Assembly: GCA_035578155.1 (NCBI GenBank)
Contig: JAPWDM010000016.1
Location: 12,320,608 to 12,384,607, forward strand
From: Brachynemurus nebulosus
Lineage: Eukaryota > Arthropoda > Insecta > Neuroptera > Myrmeleontidae
Length of the DNA: 64,000 nucleotides
Direction: 5' to 3'
Positions 54,271 through 64,000 of the stretch are shown one piece after another. Below the pieces are notes generated by a model. That model was not told the DNA's origin. It saw nothing but the letters and a program-made list of their open reading frames with translations, and did not search any database. Within the stretch, counting starts at the first letter, position 1. Each line of letters starts with the position of its first letter. The position numbers were made by a program, and so were the translations under genes.

Positions 54271-54379
54271 TAAGGGTCCACAATGTCGAAAGCTTGTATA
54301 TTTGCTACAATTTAATTACTATTGGGCACAGCACTAATTTTTTGGGTTTTTTCACTTTACCATGTAGATACAAAGCTCA

Positions 54380-54715
54380 AACTAACCCGTGAAGCGGCCG
54401 GGCGTACTTAGACACCGGTACGCCGACTGCTAGATCGGGGGTTCGAATCTCACGGCCGGTTATGCTCGTGAACGCTATCTGCAGTTGTCCTTCATAAATC
54501 CAGATGAATATCGGCATAGTTCCTTAAGAAGACGGCTGCAGACGCATACCTACCAAATCCTAGCCTTCACACCACTTCCCTTGTCCTCGACCCACATCAT
54601 AATGAATTGTAATATGTAATAGAATAAAAATGGAACTAGAAAAACAATGATGTGGGTGACATATGTTATAGACTGTTGTCTGAAAAAGGGACGTGAAGCC
54701 CATTATTATTATTAT
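54380..54715 (+). mobile_element. SINE-like unit with tRNA-related head and (ATT)n tail
   Basis: GGGGGTTCGAATCTC (about 54429-54443) matches a polymerase III B box. The upstream AAGCGGCCGGGCGTA is a weak A-box candidate. The body runs to GGGACGTGAAGCCC and then (ATT)n at 54703-54715. It is not a functional tRNA: the cloverleaf arms do not pair convincingly. Confidence 0.5.
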
Positions 54716-55582
54716 TTTTTTTTTTTTTTTTTTAAATTGGAACACTGCTGCCCGTGGATGGCGCGGTCAGCAGTGTCCGGCGGCATCGCCAACGATGGGC
54801 ATGCGCCGCCATACACACAAGAAATTAAAACACACATAAAGACAGAGACACATAAATGCAATAGACAAAGGACAAACATACACATGATAAAATTCACCGA
54901 TGAGCCCTGCCATCCCAGGGCTTCATAAAGAGCGGAGAGTCCTTGGTGGCGGTACACTAAGTACTAGCCAAAACGTCCGGTCACCAAGGACTGAAAAACC
55001 AACGATGAAACTCCCCCCGAGGTGTAAAAGGCTTCGGAGTGGAGGAAACCGACTAGAAAAAAAGATAAAACACAAATAAATATCACAGGTAAGTATCACG
55101 GTATCACAGATAAAACTTGTTGCATCACTGGGAAGCCACAGGCCAACCAGTGAAGCAAGAAGGAGTTAAAAGAAAATACCGCTGTAGCCCCGTAACAACA
55201 GGCCTACAGCGGCAAAATAAAATATCACAGATAAGGAAAGACTAAAAAAAATTCAACAATATCGAAGAATAACAATAAAATAACAACAAAATATCACAGA
55301 CTGAAAAATCACAGTAAATATATCACAGCCTACCCACTGTACCCTCGGGGGCCTAGAACCGCCCCGTGGTACAGTGGGGATTGCAACAACACCGTTGGAG
55401 GCCGCATGGACCTCCAGTGGCAGAAAAACACAGAAAAAGACAAAAAACAATAACAAAAGAATTCCACGATTTGTGTCGTCCCATTTATTTATTTATTAAC
55501 CAACCAGGGCCCCGTTAGCCTGCCAGCCAGCTAGCAGTTACCGCCGAGCACGACGAGGACGTCGGGTTGGATTTATGCCCGG

Positions 55583-55584
<2 letters not shown>
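54716..55584 (-). mobile_element. LINE-derived noncoding unit A
   Basis: Read on minus, the unit ends with GCGCCATCCACGGGCAGCAG, then A-rich sequence and (AAT)n. It is homologous to units B and C and to the 3' region of the I-like LINE (59894 onward), sharing GGGCATGCGCCGCC, ATGAGCCCTGCCATCCCAGG and the stem-loop series. It is shorter than B and C, lacking a middle portion. The minus orientation is inferred from homology to the coding LINE. Confidence 0.7.
54905..55420. other. Stem-loop array in unit A
   Basis: Consecutive hairpins include GTCCTTGGTG/CACCAAGGAC, CACTGG/CCAGTG, CCGCTGTAG/CTACAGCGG (55179-55187 with 55204-55212), CCCACTGTACC/GGTACAGTGGG (55333-55343 with 55368-55378) and TGGAGG/CCTCCA. 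TATCACAG-type linkers lie between several of them (55083, 55104, 55225, 55294). Confidence 0.65.
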
Positions 55585-55649
<65 letters not shown>

Positions 55650-55650
55650 T
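55585..55650. repeat. (ATT)n microsatellite at a unit junction
   Basis: About 22 ATT repeats between units A and B. Confidence 0.95.
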
Positions 55651-57190
55651 TTTCTTTTTTTTTTTATTTTTATTTATTTTTTTTTTTTTACTTAAAATTG
55701 GGGTACTGCTGCCGGTGGATGGCGCGGTCAGCAGCACCCGGCGGCATCGCCTACAAAGGGCATGCGCCGCCAAAACGGGAAAATGATAAAAACGACACAT
55801 ATAGACAGGAGCACATAAATGCATTAGACAACGGACAAACATACACATGATAAAATTCACCGATGAGCCCTGCCATCCCAGGGCTTCATAACGAGCGGAC
55901 AGTCCTTGGTGGCGGTACGCTAAGTACTAGCCAGAACGTCTGGTCACCAAGGACTGAAAACCAACGATGAAACTCCGAGGTGTAAGGGGCCTCGGAGTGG
56001 AGAATACTGAGTAAAATATCACAAGATAAGAACATCACAATAACATCACAAAGAAAAAATAAGAAGAAAATCTTATTACGTCATTGGGGAGCCACAGGCC
56101 GACCAGCGCCGCAATAAGTAGTTAAAAACAATACCGCTGAAGGGCTGCAACAGCAAGCCCACAGCGGCACAACAAAATATTACAGATAAGAATAAAAAAA
56201 AAGTGACGTACCACCTCGGTTGGAAAAGGCCCTCAGTGGTACATCATTAAAACAAAACAGATTAAAAACAATCTTATTAAAAAATAAAAACAACAATATC
56301 ACAGATTTTAAAAAATTTCTTGCTCTGTGGCACGATTCCGCTCCCCATAGTCTCAACAATTCCGAAATGGCTTCGTCAACACCTAGGAACTCACATGTGT
56401 AGGGACAGTGACATCTGATTACTGAGCAGCAGGTACTGTTCTGTCAGACAGCTGATTACTGGGTACATGTGCCGTTCTGTCAGATGTCGGGGTCAACCCA
56501 CACGGGAGACCGGTATGATGACTAAGCCACGTTCGTCCGAGTCGAGGCTACAGAGAACGGGACAGCGCCACAGAGTATCACAGAAAGTCAATCTGACCTA
56601 TGTTCGTATTACTTCGACGGGGCGGAAGCCGCCACATCGACGCCCGCGAACGCATCCGTACGAGGGACGACGACGTCTCCTTACTGAGCGAGCTAGCTCA
56701 AGCCGTTCGGGCAGACGTCGACTCATACGTGTGGCCAATGAGAACGAGTGCGTCGGGAGCCGCATTCCTACCCATCGAAACAACAGGATCAAGGCCAGGG
56801 AAATATCACAGACCGAGACAATACCACCGCAGGCATGAAAACCCCAAGTGGCACAACAAGTATCGCAGATATAAAAGTATCACAGATTAGTTAAACAAAA
56901 TCACAGATGTAACATCACACATTTCAACTCGTCTGAACGGTCTCGTCGGACTCCGAAGATCACGCCCATGGGAATAGACAGCACTGACGACGCATTGAAT
57001 TCCGGTCAAGGTACCAATTAAACCAAATCAAACTGACGTAGGCATAACACTCACTCGGGGGATACAACATCGTCCCCTCCACACGATCATTCTTGTCGAA
57101 ACACAGTACCAGAGCCTCGTCAGCCTGCTAGCCGAAGCTAACAGTTGCCCGCCGGTTACGAACGGGGACGTGAAGGTTGGATTTTAGCCC
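55651..57190 (-). mobile_element. LINE-derived noncoding unit B (about 1.5 kb)
   Basis: Head-to-tail with unit C (57200-58718), similar along its whole length. The middle carries CGACGGGGCGGAAGCCGCCA and a GC-rich segment; frames there (56467-56838, 56600-56890) are not conserved as proteins between B and C in a way that supports coding. It ends at GACGTGAAGGTTGGATTTTA before ATTATT. Confidence 0.75.
55865..56250. other. Stem-loop array in unit B
   Basis: AGCCCTG/CAGGGCT; AGTCCTTGGTG/CACCAAGGACT (55901-55911 with 55945-55955); ACTCCGAGG/CCTCGGAGT (55972-55980 with 55990-55998, nine perfect pairs around a 9-nt loop); CCGCTG/CAGCGG; GTACCAC/GTGGTAC. The order matches the other units. Confidence 0.65.
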
Positions 57191-57199
57191 AGCATTATT

Positions 57200-58718
57200 T
57201 TTTTTTTTACTTAAAATTGGGGTACTGCAGCCGGTGGATGGCACGGTCAGCAGCACCCGGCGGCATCGCCTACAAAGGGCATGCGCCGCCAAAACGGGAA
57301 AATGATAAAAACGACACATATAGACAGGAACACATAAATGCATTAGATAACGGACAAACATACACATGATAAAATTCACCGATGAGCCCTGCCATCCCAG
57401 GCCTTCATAACGAACGGACAGTCCTCGGTGGCGGTACGCTAAGTACTAGCCAGAACGTCCTGTCACCAAGGACTGAAAACCAACGATGAAACTCCGAGGT
57501 GTAAAGGGCCTCAGTGTGGAGAAATCTGAGTAAAAATATCACAATAAAACAACATCACAATAATATCACAAAAAAAAAGAAAATAAGAGGAAAATCTTAT
57601 TACGTCACTGGGAAGCCACAGGCCGACCAGTGCCGCAATAAGTACTTAAAAACAAAACCGCTGAGGGGCCACAACGGCAAGCCCACAGCGGCACAATAAA
57701 ATATCACAGATAAGAATAGAAAGAAATGATGTACCACCTCGGGTGGAAAAGGCCCTCGGTGGTACATCGTTAAAACAAAACAGATTAAAACAATCTTATT
57801 AAAAAATAAAAACAACAATATAACAGATTTAAAAAAAAAATTCTTGCTCTGTGGCACGATTTCGCTCCCCATAGTCTCAACAATTCCGAAATGGTTTCGT
57901 CAACACCTAGGAACTCACACGTGTAGGGACAGTGACATCTGATTACTGAGCAACATGTACTGTTCTGTCAGATAACTGATTACTGGGTATATGTGCCGTT
58001 CTGTCAGATGTCGGGGTCAACCCACACGGGAGACCGGTACGAAGACTAGGACACGTTCGTCCGAGTCGAGGCTACAGAGAACGGGACAGTGCCACAGAGT
58101 ATCACAGAACGACAATTTGACCTATGTTCGTATTACTTCGACGGGGCAGAAGCCGCCACATCGACGCCCATGAACGCATCCGTACGAGGGACGACGACGT
58201 CTCCTTACTGAGCGAGCTCGCTCAAGCCGTTCGGGCAGACATCGACTCGTACGTGTGGCCGATGAGAATGAGTGCGTCGGGAGCCGCCTTCCTACCCATC
58301 GAAACAACAAGAACAAGGCCAGGGAAACATCACAGAACGAGCAAACATTAAAAAATACCACCTCAGGCATGAGAACCCAAGTTGGCATAACAACTATCAC
58401 AGGTATCAGATCACAATTTTTACATAAATCACAGACGCAATATCACCTTTTCGACACATCCGAACGGTATCATCGGACTCCGAAGATCACGCCTACTGGA
58501 GTATGCAGCACTGGCGACGCGTTGAATTCCGGTGAAGGTACAAGTAATGAAACTCAGGCTGACGCAGGCATAACACTCACTCGGGGGATACGACATCGTC
58601 CCCTCCACACGATCATCCTTGTCGAAACACAGTACCAGAGCCTCGTCAGCCTGCTAGCCGAAGCTAACAGTTGCCCGCCGGGCACGAACGGGGACGTGAA
58701 GATTGGATTTTAGCCCAT
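57200..58718 (-). mobile_element. LINE-derived noncoding unit C (about 1.5 kb)
   Basis: Second full-length tandem copy of the B unit, with the same flanking ATTATT and the same terminal phrase GACGTGAAGATTGGATTTTA. Divergence from B by eye is a few percent, with small indels. Confidence 0.75.
57375..57775. other. Stem-loop array in unit C
   Basis: Includes GATGTACCACC/GGTGGTACATC (57729-57739 with 57759-57769, eleven perfect pairs), CACTGG/CCAGTG and CCGCTG/CAGCGG. Linkers AATATCACAGATAAG (57701) and ATATCACAATAAAAC (57536) lie between stems. Confidence 0.65.
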
Positions 58719-59145
58719 CTATTATATTATTATTATTATTATAAACTTTTACGCCAACCTGGTGCTCATTACTCAGTAGGACAGTACTGGGTAACATTCA
58801 CCTATACTGGCATTATGCAAGGTATTAGGCTCTGTGGAAGGGTAATGTGCCAAACTAATCCGTAAACGTACCGTAATACATTCACGGACGGGCTTGTCAC
58901 ATCACTCCTTATATTGTTGTTGTTGTTGCTTGAAACGAGGTGTTATGCGTCTATTTTGGTGTACACTGGGTCGTACGACGAGACTTTCGTGGGAGCGTAG
59001 ATGTTGGCTCAATGACAGACGGCTGTGATAGAATGGTTCGTTTTCGTGTCCTCAGAGGATTGGTAGGATTAGGGACAGAGGGAAGGGAAAGGACTGTTTG
59101 TCCTTTTGTTTGACTGTTGGTATTATTATTATTATTATTATTATC
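58719..59145. repeat. Segment bounded by (ATT)n tracts, no gene seen
   Basis: ATT tracts at 58719-58741 and about 59128-59145 enclose about 385 bp with a short (TTG)n run (58914-58930). No RNA gene or reading frame is recognised. It may be another retroposon tail. Confidence 0.5.
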
Positions 59146-59849
59146 GTGAAAAATTAACGAAAAACGCGACTACACTTCAAAAACCCCCAGGCGGAGGGAA
59201 AAGTGTCCATGCAGCGTACCAGGTCAGGTACTTCTAGGTCAGGTACGTAATGTCCGTCATACAGCATCCCCTTCCTGGTCTTCCCTACCTAATAAATCCC
59301 CGAACCTCGCTGCAAAACCATGGCAGTGGGAGATTCGAGGGCAGGTCCAATGGATGTTCGAGGACCCGCTCTAAACGGGGCATGGGCGTTCAAAGGTGTT
59401 CATGAACTCCCGGAGAAAGTCGTCTCGTGCGACCGGAGCGTGCGGAGCGTCCCGATAATAACTGCTTTTTGCATTGACGCCGCTAACATGTTGGCATGAG
59501 ATCTACAAGCCGGAATGATATTAAGATTGCGCACAAAGGAGTTATGCATACCCCCCAGACATCCGATTATAAGTACGACCAAGCGGATAGTATAGCCCGG
59601 GTACAGTTGTCGCAGTTCATGTATTAGATCTTGATATTTAATCCTTTTTTGCTCCTCCTTTTCGACTATGTTAGTTTCCGCCGGAGCAGAGAACTCGATA
59701 ACATACATAGTCTGAGATGTTAAATCTTGGAGCACAACATCAGGCTTATTGGCGTTCAATTGCCTGGTAGTTGCAACCGGCATATTCCAAAAGATCTTGC
59801 ATTTTTGGTTGGCAACAAAGGATTCTACTTCCGCAGGATCGTAGGGCAA
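59146..59849 (-). mobile_element. 5'-truncated R4/Dong-like LINE in a TAA-repeat target
   Basis: A minus-strand fragment flanked on both sides by (AAT)n on its own strand (59850-59893 upstream; 59128-59145 downstream). It carries only the C-terminal endonuclease region (59400-59849) plus about 250 bp of 3' UTR. Dong elements are known to insert into TAA repeats, and the arrangement fits a 5'-truncated target-primed insertion. Confidence 0.72.
59400..59849 (-). pseudogene. Restriction-like endonuclease domain of an R4/Dong-type LINE (partial)
   Basis: The translated fragment contains NKPDVVLQDLTSQTMYVIEF, which fits the PD...E core of the PD-(D/E)XK endonuclease at the C-terminus of R2/R4-type LINE proteins. 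It continues with EEQKRIKYQDLIHELRQLY and a hydrophobic strand RLVVLIIGCLGG. It ends at 59400. The frame runs open into the upstream AAT tract, giving an artefactual poly-Ile/Leu start. The RT domain is absent through 5' truncation. Confidence 0.72.
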
Positions 59850-59893
59850 GATTATTATTATTATTATTATTATTATTATTGTTATTATTATTA
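59850..59893. repeat. (ATT)n microsatellite
   Basis: About 14 ATT units with one interruption. It is both the tail of the I-like LINE (as (AAT)n on minus) and the upstream target of the Dong-like fragment. Confidence 0.9.
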
Positions 59894-60008
59894 ATTTTTT
59901 TGTGAGTATCACCAACTAAGGGCATGCGCCGCCAAACATGAGAAATATAAACATACATAAAACAGACCGGAACACAAACGGACAAACATACACAAATAAA
60001 AATCCAAC

Positions 60009-60495
60009 GATGAACCCTGCCATCTCAGGGCTTAAAGAGAGCGGACAGTCCTTGGTGACGGTACGATAAGTACTAGACAGAGCATCCGGTCACCAAGGCC
60101 TGAGGACCATCGCTGCGACTCCCTCCGAGGTGTAAAGGGCCTCGGAGTGGAGGGACCTGACTAGGAACACAGAAACGACTAGAAAAAATATCACTAAAGG
60201 TATCACAGATAAAACTTATTGTGTCACTGGGAGGCCACAGGCCAACCAGTGAAGCAATAAGGAGTTAAAACAATACCTCTGTAGAGCCATAACAACAGGC
60301 CTACAGCGGCATAACAAAATATCGCAGAGAAAGAACAACAAATGATCTACCATCTCGGTACATCGTTAAAAAACAATAACAAAAACAAACAACAAGTATT
60401 AATAACAAACAGTATCACTAAGGGTGTAAAAAGCTCTTAGTGGCATAACGAAAGACTGAAAGTACCCTGCCAGACCAGCTGGAACAGGGTATTGT
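60009..60495. other. Stem-loop array in the I-like LINE 3' UTR
   Basis: In order: CCCTG/CAGGG (60014), CCTTGGTG/CACCAAGG (60050 with 60091), CTCCGAGG/CCTCGGAG (60123 with 60140), TCACTGG/CCAGTGA (60224 with 60245), CTGTAG/CTACAG (60279 with 60301), CACTAAG/CTTAGTG (60416 with 60435) and TACCCTG/CAGGGTA (60462 with 60485). Linkers are GTATCACAGATAAAA and AATATCGCAGAGAAA. Confidence 0.65.
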
Positions 60496-60615
60496 TAATA
60501 AATAAGACAAATACAAAATCGCGAAAACACATAAAATAAAATCACTGGAAAATAAAATTTACTATTGGGGGAGAATCAAGAGATGTCTTTGATAAAATTG
60601 GGAGATGAAATGCCC

Positions 60616-61343
60616 CTAAAGTCTTTGAAGAAGATGCGAATTTCGGAGAAATTCAAGCATCTTTCTTTCAGAGACAGCATCATAAACTAAAGCTTCGGCT
60701 ACATTATTCGGGAGCTGCAACCTTCGACGCAATGGCTCAATGGTTACATATTCCTCAACTATATGCCTCACGGTCAGTGCCGTCCCGTAGACGGCACACC
60801 TTGGCTGATCCTCACCGTATGGCCCAAGCATAAACGCGTCAGGGCCAGACTCTCTCGCCGGCTCAGATTTAAAGGTACCGGAATTCTTCGGACCTCAGGT
60901 TTCACCTGTCTGAGCTTGGCCGTGAGGTTGTCCCACTCTCGTTGCCATTTATGTTCGATCGCCGATCTAATGCACACTCTCAGATCCTCTGCGCGTATGG
61001 CAATGTTCTGTGACTCTCCGACTTCGGCTGCATGACGTGCTGCCTGGTCAGCGAGTTCATTGCCAGGTAATCCAGAAGAAGGCCGGAGCATGTAGAGGTA
61101 CGTTACGATGTTTTGCACCAGGGGATCGGTTGTATAAGAGTGGCAGATCGCTTGCAACGCGCCCAATGAGTCAGGGTTAATGAGGAATGCGAAAAATCGC
61201 AAATAATGCTGCAGTATACACAATGGCCTGGGGAGGAAGTGACCAAGCGTGAGGGTCGTCACGAATGATGGTGGCACCATGCGTAGCTGTTTTGGAACCA
61301 TCTGTGTATATGCAGAGACAGTCAAGTTCGCTAATGATCTCAT
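60616..61343 (-). pseudogene. LINE RNase H and C-terminal region (frameshifted)
   Basis: RNase H motifs: FFAFLINPDSLGALQAI (active-site Asp region) and GLPGNELADQAARHA, with the usual WVPSHVG segment before it decayed. A small deletion near 60830 moves the C-terminal part (GEDQPRCAVYGTALTVRHIV, resembling the LINE C-terminal zinc finger with some cysteines lost) into another frame. Catalytic integrity is doubtful. Confidence 0.75.
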
Positions 61344-62961
61344 AAAAGCGGGATCGATCTTCGAATGAACTGGTCTCCTCCTTGTTGAGACCAGTCAGAT
61401 CGAAACGACACCTTACGTTAGGGATCAGTCAAGGGGGTACTTCCATAGGACGTTTGGGAAACACCCTGGCGAACTGTAAGTTGAGACTCTCTCATAACTC
61501 CTGTGTTCGAACGGCGACTGGTCGACTTATGGTGGGACGTCGACCATAGGCCCTTGTAAATGGTATCTGAATAGAGTCGGGTGATTAATATGCGTAGGTG
61601 TTGCATATACCCCTGCTGTAAAATTGAGCAAGAGACGCTCACGTCTCAATCGCAGCGGAGGCAGACCCGACTCTACGCAGAGGCTCATAGAAGGGCTCGT
61701 TCGAAATACAACGTACGGGCATACGACTGGCCCTCGTAGCCAGTCGTATGCCTGCATGGTGAACAGGATCTAGGAGAAGAAGCGTAGACGCCCGAGGGGT
61801 GCAGTAAACAATGCGGCCATAATCAGTCCTAGTCAGAACTAGCGATTGATACAGGGGAAGAAACGACTCCCGGCCCGCACGCGTGTCCTTAAACATTGTT
61901 TCACTATTATTTGTAATTATTTAATAATTCACAGAGTTAAATCTTAAAAAAAACTAAAAGTGAAAACTAATTTTTCTATTCAAAATTGCTGGAATTTAGC
62001 GTTTCTCGAGAAAAATAAGACACTCTCGTTTCGCCAAAATTCGCTAAAATAATATTGATTTATCCCAATCATGTAATTCGAAAAGATATTGCGAAATCAC
62101 TTAAGCATGTTGATTGTCCTGCGACAACTCGCAGCTAAGGCTTGGAGGCGTGGGCGCCACGTAAGTTGTTTATCAAATATGAGTCCTAGAAACCTGACGC
62201 TATCCACGCACTGAAGATTGGATCCCTTTAAAGTAAGAACAGGATCCGGATGTGCGCTGCGCTTTCTGCAGAAGTGAACCACCGATGTTTTGTGTGGAGA
62301 AAAACGAAAGAAAAACGAAAACCAAGAGCTTCTGCAGAAGTCACCACTTCGTTGATGCTTTGTTGCAGCCGTTGTTGGATATCCTCAATGGAATCGGCTG
62401 CATAGAAGATTCTGAGGTCATCAACGTACAAGCAACGACGAATTGGGGATAATGCTGCAATATGACTGACTGCAATGGATAACAAGGTGACATTAATGGT
62501 GGAGCCATGAGGAACATCATTCTCCTGGGAGTGGGCCTCAGGGAGCGGGACGTGTCACCTACCCGGACACGACACGTACGGTCAGCCAGAAAACTCTTAA
62601 CGAACTGTGGGAGGTTACCTTTCAAACCCCAGTCGTGCAGCTTCTTGAGAATGCCATACCTCCAGGTCATATCATAAGCTTTCTCCAAATCGAAAAACAC
62701 AGGCACAAGGTTTCCTCGTTGTCGGCGGCACCCACATTGACGTTTGTGGGATTCCAGCCACCAGACGAGGCGGTTGTTCACCATTTTTTCCAATACCTTG
62801 CTGAAACCACAAGTCTAGGATATTCGACGGTAGCTAGATAGTTGCGATGAATCTTTACCCTCTTTTAGCAGCGGAATGATGGTAGCTTCTCGCCACTGCG
62901 GAGGGTAAACGCCTTACCAAAAAATTTCGTTGTAAAGATCCAGTAACCTACACTTACCAGG
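61344..62961 (-). pseudogene. LINE reverse transcriptase (frameshifted, with insertion)
   Basis: RT pieces on minus in several frames: REATIIPLLKEGKD (about 62870), FFDLEKAYDMTWRYGILKK (about 62650-62700), the catalytic CLYVDDLRIFYAA (about 62400), VDSVRFLGLIFDKQLTW (thumb, about 62190), then FLPLYQSLVLTRTDYG (about 61830). Frame changes occur near 62515 and near 62900. A 203-bp MITE splits the thumb region at 61897-62099. Confidence 0.82.
61897..62099. mobile_element. 203-bp MITE inserted in LINE RT, 9-bp duplication
   Basis: Flanked by CTTAAACAT (61888-61896) and CTTAAGCAT (62100-62108). Removing the insert and one duplicate restores a continuous LINE frame across the site. Ends TGTTTCACTATTAT and, inverted, TGATTTCGCAATAT are imperfect inverted repeats. 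AT-rich, noncoding. Confidence 0.75.
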
Positions 62962-64000
62962 TTAAGGCAGGTTTCGGATCATGGTGTAGAGAATCTCATC
63001 AGGTCCAAGGGAAGTATCCCCAGATCTCCGAAGCACCTCCAGTAATTCTTGAATGGTAAACGGATGGTTATACTGGAGAAGTTCATCAGAGAAAAAATCT
63101 AGATCATTTTGCTCATGTTGGATCTTGATCTGCAGGAAGTCTGGGTCATAATTTTGGGAGCCACTGACGCGCTCAAAGTGCTTAGCTAAGCAATTAGCTA
63201 TTTCTGCGCGTTCAGTAATGTTCCGTCCGTTGACGATGAGAAGGGAGGGCATTAGTGAACGGGAAGATTTCCCTGTAATGGCCCTCACTCTTCTCCATAC
63301 CTCCGAAGTTGTAGTGGAGGTATTAATGGCCGAAACATATTGCTCCCATGGTAGCCTCTTTTGTTCTTTAATTGTGCGTTTACAGCGTGCTTGTGCACGC
63401 TTGTAGGCTATGATATTTTCCTGCGTGGGGCGACATCTGAGTTCGGGGTACGCCCGCTTTTGCTCGGCAACTGCTACACTCACGACTTCATTCCACCATG
63501 GTAAGCGAAGTTTAGGTAGAATGTTGGATGACAGAGGTACACTCTTATGTGCTGCTTCAATGACACTGGAGGAAATTTGCTCCACATCATCTTCTACGTC
63601 TCCAGTCAGCTCGAGTGTACGGAATGAATCGCCGTACATGTCCCAGTCAGCTTGACGGAGACGCCATCTCGGCGAAGACGATTGTGGAGTCATCGGCGTG
63701 GTATTGCTTAAAATAATAGGTATATGGTCGCTACCGTGTGAGTCTGACGCCAGCGTCCACACATAACGGTGCGCCATAACTGGTGAGCCAAGTGATAAGT
63801 CGATAGCCGACAACTCACCGGTTCTTGCATTAATAAAAGTACTTTGATCGGTATTCAACAAGACCGTTTCAGACTCATCAAGAAAACGTTCGATAAGTCT
63901 TCCACGGGCGTCTCTTGTGCTACAGCCCCACATGGGACTGTGAACATTGAAATCTCCTAGTAACAAATGAGCAATTCCATGTATAAACCGATCACCCAAA
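62962..64000 (-). CDS. LINE ORF2, AP-endonuclease C-terminal part and start of RT (partial)
   Basis: Open frame of at least 345 codons entering from beyond the window edge. AP-type endonuclease motifs LLLGDFNVHSPMWG and SDSHGSDHIPI are intact. A connecting region rich in basic residues (YKRAQARCKRTIKEQKRLPW) precedes an RT0-like block FTIQELLEVLRRSGDTSLGP DE. It ends at a stop at 62962, just before the broken RT. The best-preserved part of the LINE. Confidence 0.85.
   Translation of the reverse strand, partial: LGDRFIHGIAHLLLGDFNVHSPMWGCSTRDARGRLIERFLDESETVLLNTDQSTFINARTGELSAIDLSLGSPVMAHRYVWTLASDSHGSDHIPIILSNTTPMTPQSSSPRWRLRQADWDMYGDSFRTLELTGDVEDDVEQISSSVIEAAHKSVPLSSNILPKLRLPWWNEVVSVAVAEQKRAYPELRCRPTQENIIAYKRAQARCKRTIKEQKRLPWEQYVSAINTSTTTSEVWRRVRAITGKSSRSLMPSLLIVNGRNITERAEIANCLAKHFERVSGSQNYDPDFLQIKIQHEQNDLDFFSDELLQYNHPFTIQELLEVLRRSGDTSLGPDEILYTMIRNLP

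What the first reader, a model, noticed from the sequence alone, without database searches (positions are those of the whole stretch)
54905..60495. Arrays of distinct stem-loops separated by a TATCACAGAT-type linker in LINE-derived 3' regions
Units A, B, C and the coding I-like LINE each carry six to eight different perfect hairpins (for example 9 bp at 55972-55998, 11 bp at 55333-55378, 11 bp at 57729-57769). Linkers such as AATATCACAGATAAG recur about 25 times between 55083 and 60420. The stems differ from one another, yet each is preserved between units. This looks like a structured RNA region, possibly for RT recognition, protein binding or nuclease protection. I know of no described counterpart.
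Basis: partly seen in the sequence, partly recalled or inferred. Interest (0 to 1): 0.75.

Follow-up and report, generated by a model that had tools for sequence, protein, structure and literature searches.

The report
Ribozyme-headed retrotransposon parasites with hairpin tails
The reported hairpins are the structured RNA tail of a common jumping gene, and the three repeat units are gene-less hitchhikers that pair this tail with what looks like a self-cutting RNA at their front end, a rare kind of genome parasite seen here in hundreds of copies.

Summary
The hairpins lie on the minus strand in the 3' UTR of a LINE (endonuclease, RT, RNase H). Three other copies carry ten hairpins (H1-H10) there. 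Units A, B and C are complete non-autonomous elements, about 0.85 and 1.5 kb, that share H4-H10. Stems vary about half as much as spacers between copies and show some compensatory change, so RNA-level selection is moderately supported. The linker core (sense CUGUGAUA) is enriched on one strand.

A model built from 21 copies found 28 in 42 sources, all at 5' ends of units or 5' fragments. P1 is fully paired in 25 of 28; the catalytic C is present in 27 of 28. Non-simple target duplications abut its first G and the poly(A) tail in 12 of 25 copies. A and B/C share little beyond ribozyme and 3' UTR. Three near-identical 5'-complete copies of the partner LINE lack this ribozyme. The closest match is the Drosophila R2/R1 hybrid SIDE. 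The hairpins most likely recruit the LINE proteins in trans (inferred). Cleavage and binding are untested.

The parts
54716..55583 (-). Unit A: complete non-autonomous element, about 0.85 kb; 5' end at 55583, poly(A) tail at 54716, (AAT)n on the 5' side
55504..55583 (-). HDV-like ribozyme fold of unit A: P1 GCCGGGC/GCTCGGC, P3 ACG/CGT, L3 TCCTCGT, GGTAAC, P4, catalytic CTAA
   Evidence: Rfam HDV families align here, below gathering score; 82.7 bits
55333..55378 (-). Hairpin between ribozyme and H4, 11 bp, in A; the copy L027 has a different complementary stem at this place (read by eye)
54740..55214 (-). Hairpins H10 to H4 of unit A, with CTGTGATA linkers between H4, H5 and H6
55679..57193 (-). 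Unit B: complete non-autonomous element, about 1.5 kb, starting directly in the tail of unit C
57109..57193 (-). HDV-like ribozyme fold of unit B, P1 down to 5 of 7 pairs
   Evidence: (105 bits)
55972..55998 (-). H6 of unit B: 9-bp stem, sense apical loop CCCCTTACA, a form of the CC(Y)UUUACA loop
57194..58719 (-). Unit C: complete non-autonomous element, about 1.5 kb; no clear target duplication found
58635..58719 (-). HDV-like ribozyme fold of unit C (P1 6 of 7 pairs)
   Evidence: RF00094 23.3 bits over the full model, gathering score 50; 108.3 bits
57728..57768 (-). H3 of unit C: GATGTACCACC stem, tandem G-A internal loop (by eye), loop CCTTTTCCA
59893..60610 (-). 3' UTR of the coding LINE, hairpins H1-H8 plus one arm of H9; H3 has a deletion; H10 and the rest of H9 are missing in this copy
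60463..60491 (-). H1 of the LINE 3' UTR
60416..60442 (-). H2 of the LINE 3' UTR (loop motif shared with H3 and H6 in other copies)
60215..60261 (-). H5 of the LINE 3' UTR; in the copy L010 a 16-bp stem with GGCC-UGU-GGCC top
60616..63999 (-). ORF2 fragments of the LINE (endonuclease PF14529 in this copy; RNase H PF00075 and a sub-cutoff RVT_1 in the copy L013), broken into several frames here

Best explanation
A, B and C are SIDE-like non-autonomous retrotransposons: a 5' HDV-like ribozyme fold, a middle without recognisable genes that differs between families, and about 500 nt of 3' UTR hairpins (H4-H10) shared with an autonomous RNase H-bearing LINE, then poly(A). Proposed cycle. (1) The element is transcribed as part of a longer RNA, in some cases from a neighbouring copy, because several copies lie head to tail in (TAA)n tails (arrangement shown, transcription inferred). 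(2) The ribozyme cuts at its first G and releases the exact 5' end (fold and position shown, cleavage inferred). (3) The hairpin array, with repeated loop and linker motifs, is bound in trans by the LINE's RNP and primes target-primed reverse transcription (constraint and sharing shown, binding inferred). (4) Insertion leaves target-site duplications abutting the ribozyme and the tail (shown in 12 of 25 copies).
For: Ribozyme: a strict fold scan gave 20 hits in 314 kb, 0 in the reversed sequence. Model R1 found 28 in 42 sources (21 seeds, 7 new), all at 5' ends of units or of 5' fragments. First base G in 28 of 28, P1 7/7 in 25 of 28, catalytic C in 27 of 28. Three Rfam HDV-like families align over their full models to C and two to A. 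P2 U-A to C-G change in 3 of 17 distinct sequences. Precise ends: 12 of 25 copies have non-simple duplications (up to 1 mismatch) abutting ribozyme and tail. Modularity: A and B/C share the first 81-86 nt and the 3' UTR; otherwise only short pieces, the best 33 nt at E 2e-5; against the LINE loci the middles give nothing better than E 0.019. Trans partner: H4-H10 shared with LINE copies L010, L013, L028. Structure: both-side changes in 28 cells against 12.2 +/- 2.7; mean pairwise difference 0.110 in stems, 0.199 in spacers; G-U 61 and A-C 43 among pairs predicted on both strands. Copy number: 622 exact ribozyme cores with control 0, a lower bound because some variants do not fit the patterns. 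R2/R1 hybrid SIDEs have the same layout and, in D. willistoni, occur in R1 tandem arrays (PMC3414825, section 7).
Against: Rfam matches are well below gathering scores (23.3 against 50; 22.5 against 44), with E-values of 0.014-1.7 for the HDV families that match over the full model even in 121-141 nt; at gathering threshold the window has no match. P2 is only 4 bp, where R2 ribozymes have at least 5 (PMC3774820, passages). Covariation within the ribozyme alignment is slight: 1 pair and 3 cells with changes on both sides. No cleavage, transcription or binding data. The structure scored came from one sense-strand copy, relatedness among copies inflates such scores, and two of its five measures do not clearly exceed shuffles (47 and 253 of 500). 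CTGTGATA sites are not predicted to be more unpaired than the rest of the element, so 'single-stranded linker' is unproven. Copies were fetched because they hold the exact 15-mer, so the sample cannot show linker conservation. 'Partner lacks the ribozyme' rests on three near-identical copies (L053-L055).
Confidence: 0.72

Rival explanations
1. The hairpins act as DNA: palindromes or binding sites in the double-stranded element or its cDNA (transcription-factor sites such as GATA, replication or cruciform elements), not as RNA.
For: Folding is stable on both strands, more so on the antisense strand in A, C and the LINE by z-score. The linker contains TATC and GATA words (seen by eye).
Against: G-U pairs on the sense strand outnumber A-C in register pairs, 190 to 52, and among states shared by at least 4 sequences, 11 to 3 (register taken from a sense fold); among pairs predicted on both strands the excess is small, 61 to 43. 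TGTGATA is on the sense strand only in the 10 elements counted.
Confidence: 0.12
2. Only the last one or two hairpins (H9-H10) matter for RT recognition; the rest is inherited hitchhiking sequence.
For: For zebrafish stringent LINEs a stem-loop of the 3' tail is recognised (PMC4176376, abstract); R2Bm binds a two-hairpin element and the R2Tg structure concerns the 3' 67 nt (PMC12222951, passages).
Against: H4-H8 are kept in both A-type and B/C-type copies, whose middles differ (L036 lacks H6); H4 and H5 show both-side changes (3 and 2 pairs).
Confidence: 0.25
3. The arrays are relics: the stems look preserved only because the copies are young, and the covariation is phylogenetic noise.
For: Many fetched copies look recent, with near-perfect duplications; covariation counts are small (10 pairs, 28 cells), and 47 of 500 shuffles reach the number of covarying pairs.
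Against: Stem and spacer divergence differ nearly twofold in the same copies; H10 pairs 551-585 and 552-584 show GC to AU in 5 and UA to CG in 7 of 24 copies with letters.
Confidence: 0.1
4. The 5' fold is not a ribozyme but a promoter or packaging structure that resembles HDV.
For: Sub-threshold Rfam scores; no assay.
Against: The HDV landmarks occur in order, the catalytic C is kept in 27 of 28, and in 12 of 25 copies a non-simple duplication ends at the fold's first G.
Confidence: 0.07

Closest known systems
R2/R1 hybrid SIDEs of Drosophila (Eickbush and Eickbush 2012, PMC3414825; abstract and sections 7 and 9 read)
   Same: HDV-like ribozyme at the 5' end from one source, 3' UTR of a second non-LTR element, no coding capacity, target duplications, copies mixed into tandem arrays of the partner
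   Different: Here not in rDNA but dispersed over contigs, 622 exact ribozyme cores; the middles of A and B/C differ; the 3' UTR is a hairpin array with repeated loop and linker motifs; the ribozyme donor is unknown
Alfalfa mosaic virus 3' UTR (PMC9414508, passages)
   Same: Linear array of distinct stem-loops flanked by a repeated short motif, with several independent protein-binding sites
   Different: Plant RNA virus, AUGC motif, coat protein as ligand; no homology claimed; binding here untested
Stringent-type LINE 3' tails (ZfL2, PMC4176376, abstract; R2Bm and R2Tg 3' UTR, PMC12222951, passages)
   Same: Structured 3' end used for recognition by the element's own protein
   Different: Those use a stem-loop, a two-hairpin element or a pseudoknot; here ten hairpins over roughly 800 nt, recognition untested
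Persaeus SIDE of Lepidoptera (PMC6740152, abstract)
   Same: Widespread, burst-amplified SIDE of a LINE in insects
   Different: Originated from a CR1 element; the word ribozyme does not occur in the paper (count)
Retrozymes (PMC7229834, abstract and section headings)
   Same: Non-autonomous non-LTR elements with self-cleaving ribozymes, also found in tandem
   Different: Hammerhead ribozyme and circular RNA; here HDV-like

Membership tests
HDV-like self-cleaving ribozyme | P1 of 6-7 bp starting at the cleavage site, P3 with conserved L3, P1.1, P4, J4/2 with catalytic C, P2 closing the pseudoknot | tested here: met
   P2 only 4 bp; P1.1 judged by eye; the CNRA form of J4/2 is recalled
HDV-like self-cleaving ribozyme | Score above the Rfam gathering cut-off of an existing family | tested here: not met
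   23.3 of 50 bits (RF00094), 22.5 of 44 (RF02682), 17.9 of 37 (RF01787). A cut-off, not a mechanism, but no existing Rfam family would list it
HDV-like self-cleaving ribozyme | Self-cleavage in vitro | not testable with these tools
   none
SIDE | No protein-coding capacity | tested here: met
   7 open frames of 80-179 aa in A-C give 0 Pfam families; other frames were not scanned
SIDE | 3' end homologous to the 3' UTR of an autonomous LINE | tested here: met
SIDE | 5' ribozyme plus 3' UTR, propagation by TPRT (target duplication, tail) | tested here: met
   (12 of 25 with non-simple duplication)
SIDE (internal-deletion type) | 5' end taken from the partner's own 5' end | tested here: not met
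   R1 finds 0 in L029 and L050-L055; three near-identical 5'-complete copies start with another sequence. Hence likened to the hybrid type only
Stringent-type LINE | RT specifically recognises its 3' UTR | not testable with these tools
   consistent sharing only
LINE, I superfamily | APE-type endonuclease, RT, RNase H, CCHC ORF1 | tested here: inconclusive
   PF14529 and PF00075 are above their cut-offs; RVT_1 is below its cut-off on a partial ORF (23.1 of 29.6 bits); CCHC knuckles in ORF1 seen by eye, no Pfam hit for that piece; no tree was made, so the clade is unresolved

The most novel reading that the evidence does not exclude
The 3' array is a polyvalent protein-assembly site: in the LINE three hairpins with unrelated stems carry one loop motif (CC(Y)UUU(A/C)CA), two of them kept in B/C and one in A, and they are spaced by CUGUGAUA, so each transcript carries several copies of one bipartite binding site for a LINE protein, as in alfamoviruses. 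A chimeric ribozyme-headed parasite captured this site and spreads as self-excising units inside LINE tails and tandem LINE arrays.
Probability: 0.25. Interest if true: 0.78.

Novelty: new variant of a known kind. Interest (0 to 1): 0.57.

Why it matters
SIDEs and ribozyme/LINE hybrids are described as rare (PMC3414825, discussion). Here one genome holds hundreds, in at least two families with different middles kept between the same two RNA modules. That is a natural deletion experiment telling which RNA parts a LINE needs, and it makes two questions testable: whether a LINE RNP reads a multi-hairpin array rather than one terminal stem-loop, and whether ribozyme processing lets promoter-less parasites live off read-through from head-to-tail arrays.

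Tried and rejected
MITE or palindromic-insert origin of the hairpins: rejected, since target duplications lie at the unit ends and the hairpins are colinear with the LINE 3' UTR.

Known RNA family for the hairpins: Rfam gives none at gathering threshold; the weak hits on the hairpins are to unrelated families and were ignored.

Protein-coding middle: 0 Pfam families for 7 frames.

Loop paralogy of H2/H3/H6 as proof of duplication: weak. A generic 13-mer triple is reached in 21, 16 and 14 of 300 shuffles for L013, L010 and L028. The longest exact repeat is significant only in L010 (0 of 500; 95 of 500 for L013 and 426 of 500 for L028). So it is kept as suggestive only.

Linker accessibility: no excess of unpaired probability.

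Ribozyme in the autonomous LINE: none found by R1, and no HDV family in the L054 5' end.

Species: not identified. One protein search with the endonuclease fragment gave four unnamed relatives.

Literature: searches for structured or hairpin-bearing LINE 3' regions were made; judged by titles and abstract starts, no listed paper describes such an array in a LINE, but the library lacks most subscription papers. PMC4035085 was listed but not read (one search failed). [quoted passage not shown]
Full report
What was claimed. Arrays of distinct stem-loops separated by a TATCACAGAT-type linker in three LINE-derived units and a coding LINE at 54905-60495, possibly for RT recognition, protein binding or nuclease protection.

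Check of the observation. The named hairpins are present. The + strand holds 25 ATCACA and 13 TATCACAG in the region against 1 and 1 on the other strand. In sense orientation (minus strand) TGTGATA occurs 5, 5 and 5 times in A, B and C, against shuffle means of 0.07, 0.22 and 0.20 (maxima 1, 2, 3 of 300), and never on the other strand. It occurs once in the window LINE 3' UTR (shuffle maximum 2) and 3, 3 and 2 times in the LINE copies L013, L010 and L028 (shuffle maxima 1, 1, 2). The 15-mer AATATCACAGATAAG has 436 + 444 exact copies in the 960 Mb genome and 0 for the reversed control. Folding energies are 4.6 to 8.6 SD below shuffles, on both strands. Six or more perfect hairpins per unit is true of A only.

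Orientation and anatomy. Reading frames put a LINE on the minus strand with endonuclease, RT and RNase H parts (RT below its Pfam cut-off on a partial frame), so the hairpin region is its 3' UTR. Copies in L010, L013 and L028 show the 3' UTR complete: ten hairpins H1-H10, then poly(A) and (TAA)n. The ten are assigned by homology and by eye; the energy fold of a single copy does not form every one of them. The window copy has a deletion in H3, and its match stops inside H9.

Sampling. I fetched 40 of the first 42 listed of the 880 places, all on contig C1. One of them, L030, was cut at wrong coordinates. Extraction found 48 pieces; 4 shorter than 380 nt (in L030, L038 and two in L045) were dropped and 4 window copies added, giving 48 copies. 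From these I chose 25 representatives for alignment A1. Because places were chosen by the linker 15-mer, nothing here tests linker conservation.

Are the stems under selection? On A1, with H6 left out because its alignment is shifted by an insertion, 92.9% of cells pair (shuffles 92.0). 28 cells carry a change on both sides, against 12.2 +/- 2.7 in shuffles (0 of 500), and sliding the partner by 1-3 columns gives 6-12. The covariation score is 0.098 against 0.083 (0 of 500). The number of pairs with such a change, 10, is reached by 47 of 500 shuffles, and the number of further pair types by 253 of 500. The best single cases are H10 551-585 (GC 14, AU 5, GU 4), H10 552-584 (UA 17, CG 7) and H4 44-63 (AU 12, GU 7, GC 4). 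Stem columns differ by 0.110 on average, hairpin loops by 0.152 and spacers by 0.199. G-U against A-C, a test of which strand is the RNA, gives 190 to 52 cells in register pairs (biased because the register came from a sense fold) and 61 to 43 in pairs predicted on both strands. Together this favours selection on the sense RNA, moderately rather than overwhelmingly.

Repeated loop. H2, H3 and H6 have unrelated stems but carry forms of the motif GG-CC(Y)UUU(A/C)CA-CC; 63 of 65 occurrences of the motif pattern in the window and loci L009-L049 lie between arms with at least 6 pairs, isolated mismatches allowed. Shuffle tests of the repetition itself are equivocal.

What the units are. Rfam searched at low stringency put HDV-like ribozyme families at the 5' ends of A and C. 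Focused searches aligned RF00094, RF02682 and RF01787 to C and RF02682 and RF01787 to A over the full model, below gathering scores and with E-values of 0.014-1.7. A strict scan for the HDV fold found 20 sites in 314 kb, none in the reversed sequences, and a covariance model built from 21 copies found 28 sites in 42 sources: 3 in the window and 25 in fetched loci, all at 5' ends of units or of 5' fragments. Loci without a site hold, where I looked (L009-L028, ranges), 5'-truncated or interrupted units; for L030-L049 I did not examine why. All 28 start with G; P1 is 7/7 paired in 25, 6 in 2 and 5 in 1 (unit B); the J4/2 C is present in 27, and L034 has T. P1 variants stay paired (GCTGGGC/GCCCGGC, GCTGGGC/GCCCAGC, GCCGGGC/GCTCGGC, GCCGGGC/GCTTGGT, GCTGGGT/GCCTGGT), by single-sided change through G-U. 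P2 changes U-A to C-G in 3 of 17 distinct sequences. On that alignment covariation as a whole is slight: 1 pair with changes on both sides (reached by 278 of 500 shuffles), 3 cells (3 of 500).

Exact ends. Of 28 copies, 25 have an identifiable 3' end; 12 of these show a non-simple duplication (12-16 nt matched, A-rich start included, at most 1 mismatch) abutting the ribozyme's first G and the poly(A) tail, and 13 lie in TAA or A-rich sequence or gave no clear duplication, unit C among the latter. 11 of 28 directly follow (AAT)n. B starts in the tail of C.

Modularity. A and B/C align over the first 81-86 nt (the ribozyme, 77-78% identity) and over the 3' UTR. Between them only short pieces match, the best being 33 nt at 85% (E 2e-5, T-rich), and against the LINE loci nothing is better than E 0.019. 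No Pfam family is found in 7 open frames of 80-179 aa. Exact ribozyme cores number 90 (A type plus a few others) and 532 (B type), with controls 0; variants such as L010 or L017 do not fit the patterns, so this is a lower bound.

Partner LINE. Five loci around ORF1 were obtained, one of them the window's own LINE (40 of 750 candidates were scored). L053, L054 and L055 share a 5' region that begins at GGTGGTGAGGACACC, directly after differing flanks or a tail. The ribozyme model finds nothing in L029 or L050-L055. So the units look like hybrids rather than internal deletions, with the caveat that three near-identical copies were tested.

Comparison with what is known. R2/R1 hybrid SIDEs of Drosophila join an R2 ribozyme to the R1 3' end, have R1-type 14-bp duplications and, in D. 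willistoni, occur within R1 tandem arrays; their ribozymes cleave in vitro; and the authors call non-LTR SIDEs rare (PMC3414825, sections 7 and 9). The R1 3' UTR is described there as 500-1,000 bp with six conserved regions, which might be a looser analogue of this array. For the array itself, the best analogue in organisation is the alfalfa mosaic virus 3' UTR, a linear array of stem-loops flanked by AUGC motifs with several coat-protein binding sites (PMC9414508, passages). Recognition of a stem-loop or a two-hairpin element is described for ZfL2 (PMC4176376, abstract) and R2Bm (PMC12222951, passages).

Verdict. The hairpin observation is real and its RNA interpretation gains moderate support. 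The stronger finding is that the units are abundant hybrid SIDE-like elements with an HDV-like ribozyme fold at their exact 5' ends. Function of the array (trans-recognition by the LINE RNP) is the most likely reading and is inferred.

Noticed in passing
G000 contig C1, for example 89401510-89465364 and 77194636-77304986 (places): The autonomous LINE forms head-to-tail tandem arrays: among the 100 listed of 706 H2 places, 43 of 43 neighbours closer than 16 kb are on the same strand and 16 are 6.8-7.3 kb apart, perhaps one LINE length. Possibly centromeric or tail-targeted insertion.
   Followed up: partly
L053-L055: The LINE's 5' end (GGTGGTGAGGACACC...) folds into long imperfect stems of its own; no Rfam HDV match in L054.
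   Followed up: partly
window 54370-54716, + strand: A tRNA-derived SINE-like element (B-box-like GGTTCGAATCTC, seen by eye) ends in (ATT)n directly beside unit A's tail; the tRNA search found no tRNA gene in the window.
   Followed up: no
window 59112-59851: Another repeat, 95% identical in L005/L013, lies between unit C and the LINE; the part of its open frame that was scanned (59400-59852, -) gives no Pfam hit, and by eye the same protein occurs upstream of the LINE in L052.
   Followed up: no
L017, L027, L036: A subfamily whose ribozyme P1 holds four G-U pairs (GCTGGGT/GCCTGGT) and whose J4/2 reads CAGA instead of CTRA, yet with clear duplications in L027 and L036.
   Followed up: no
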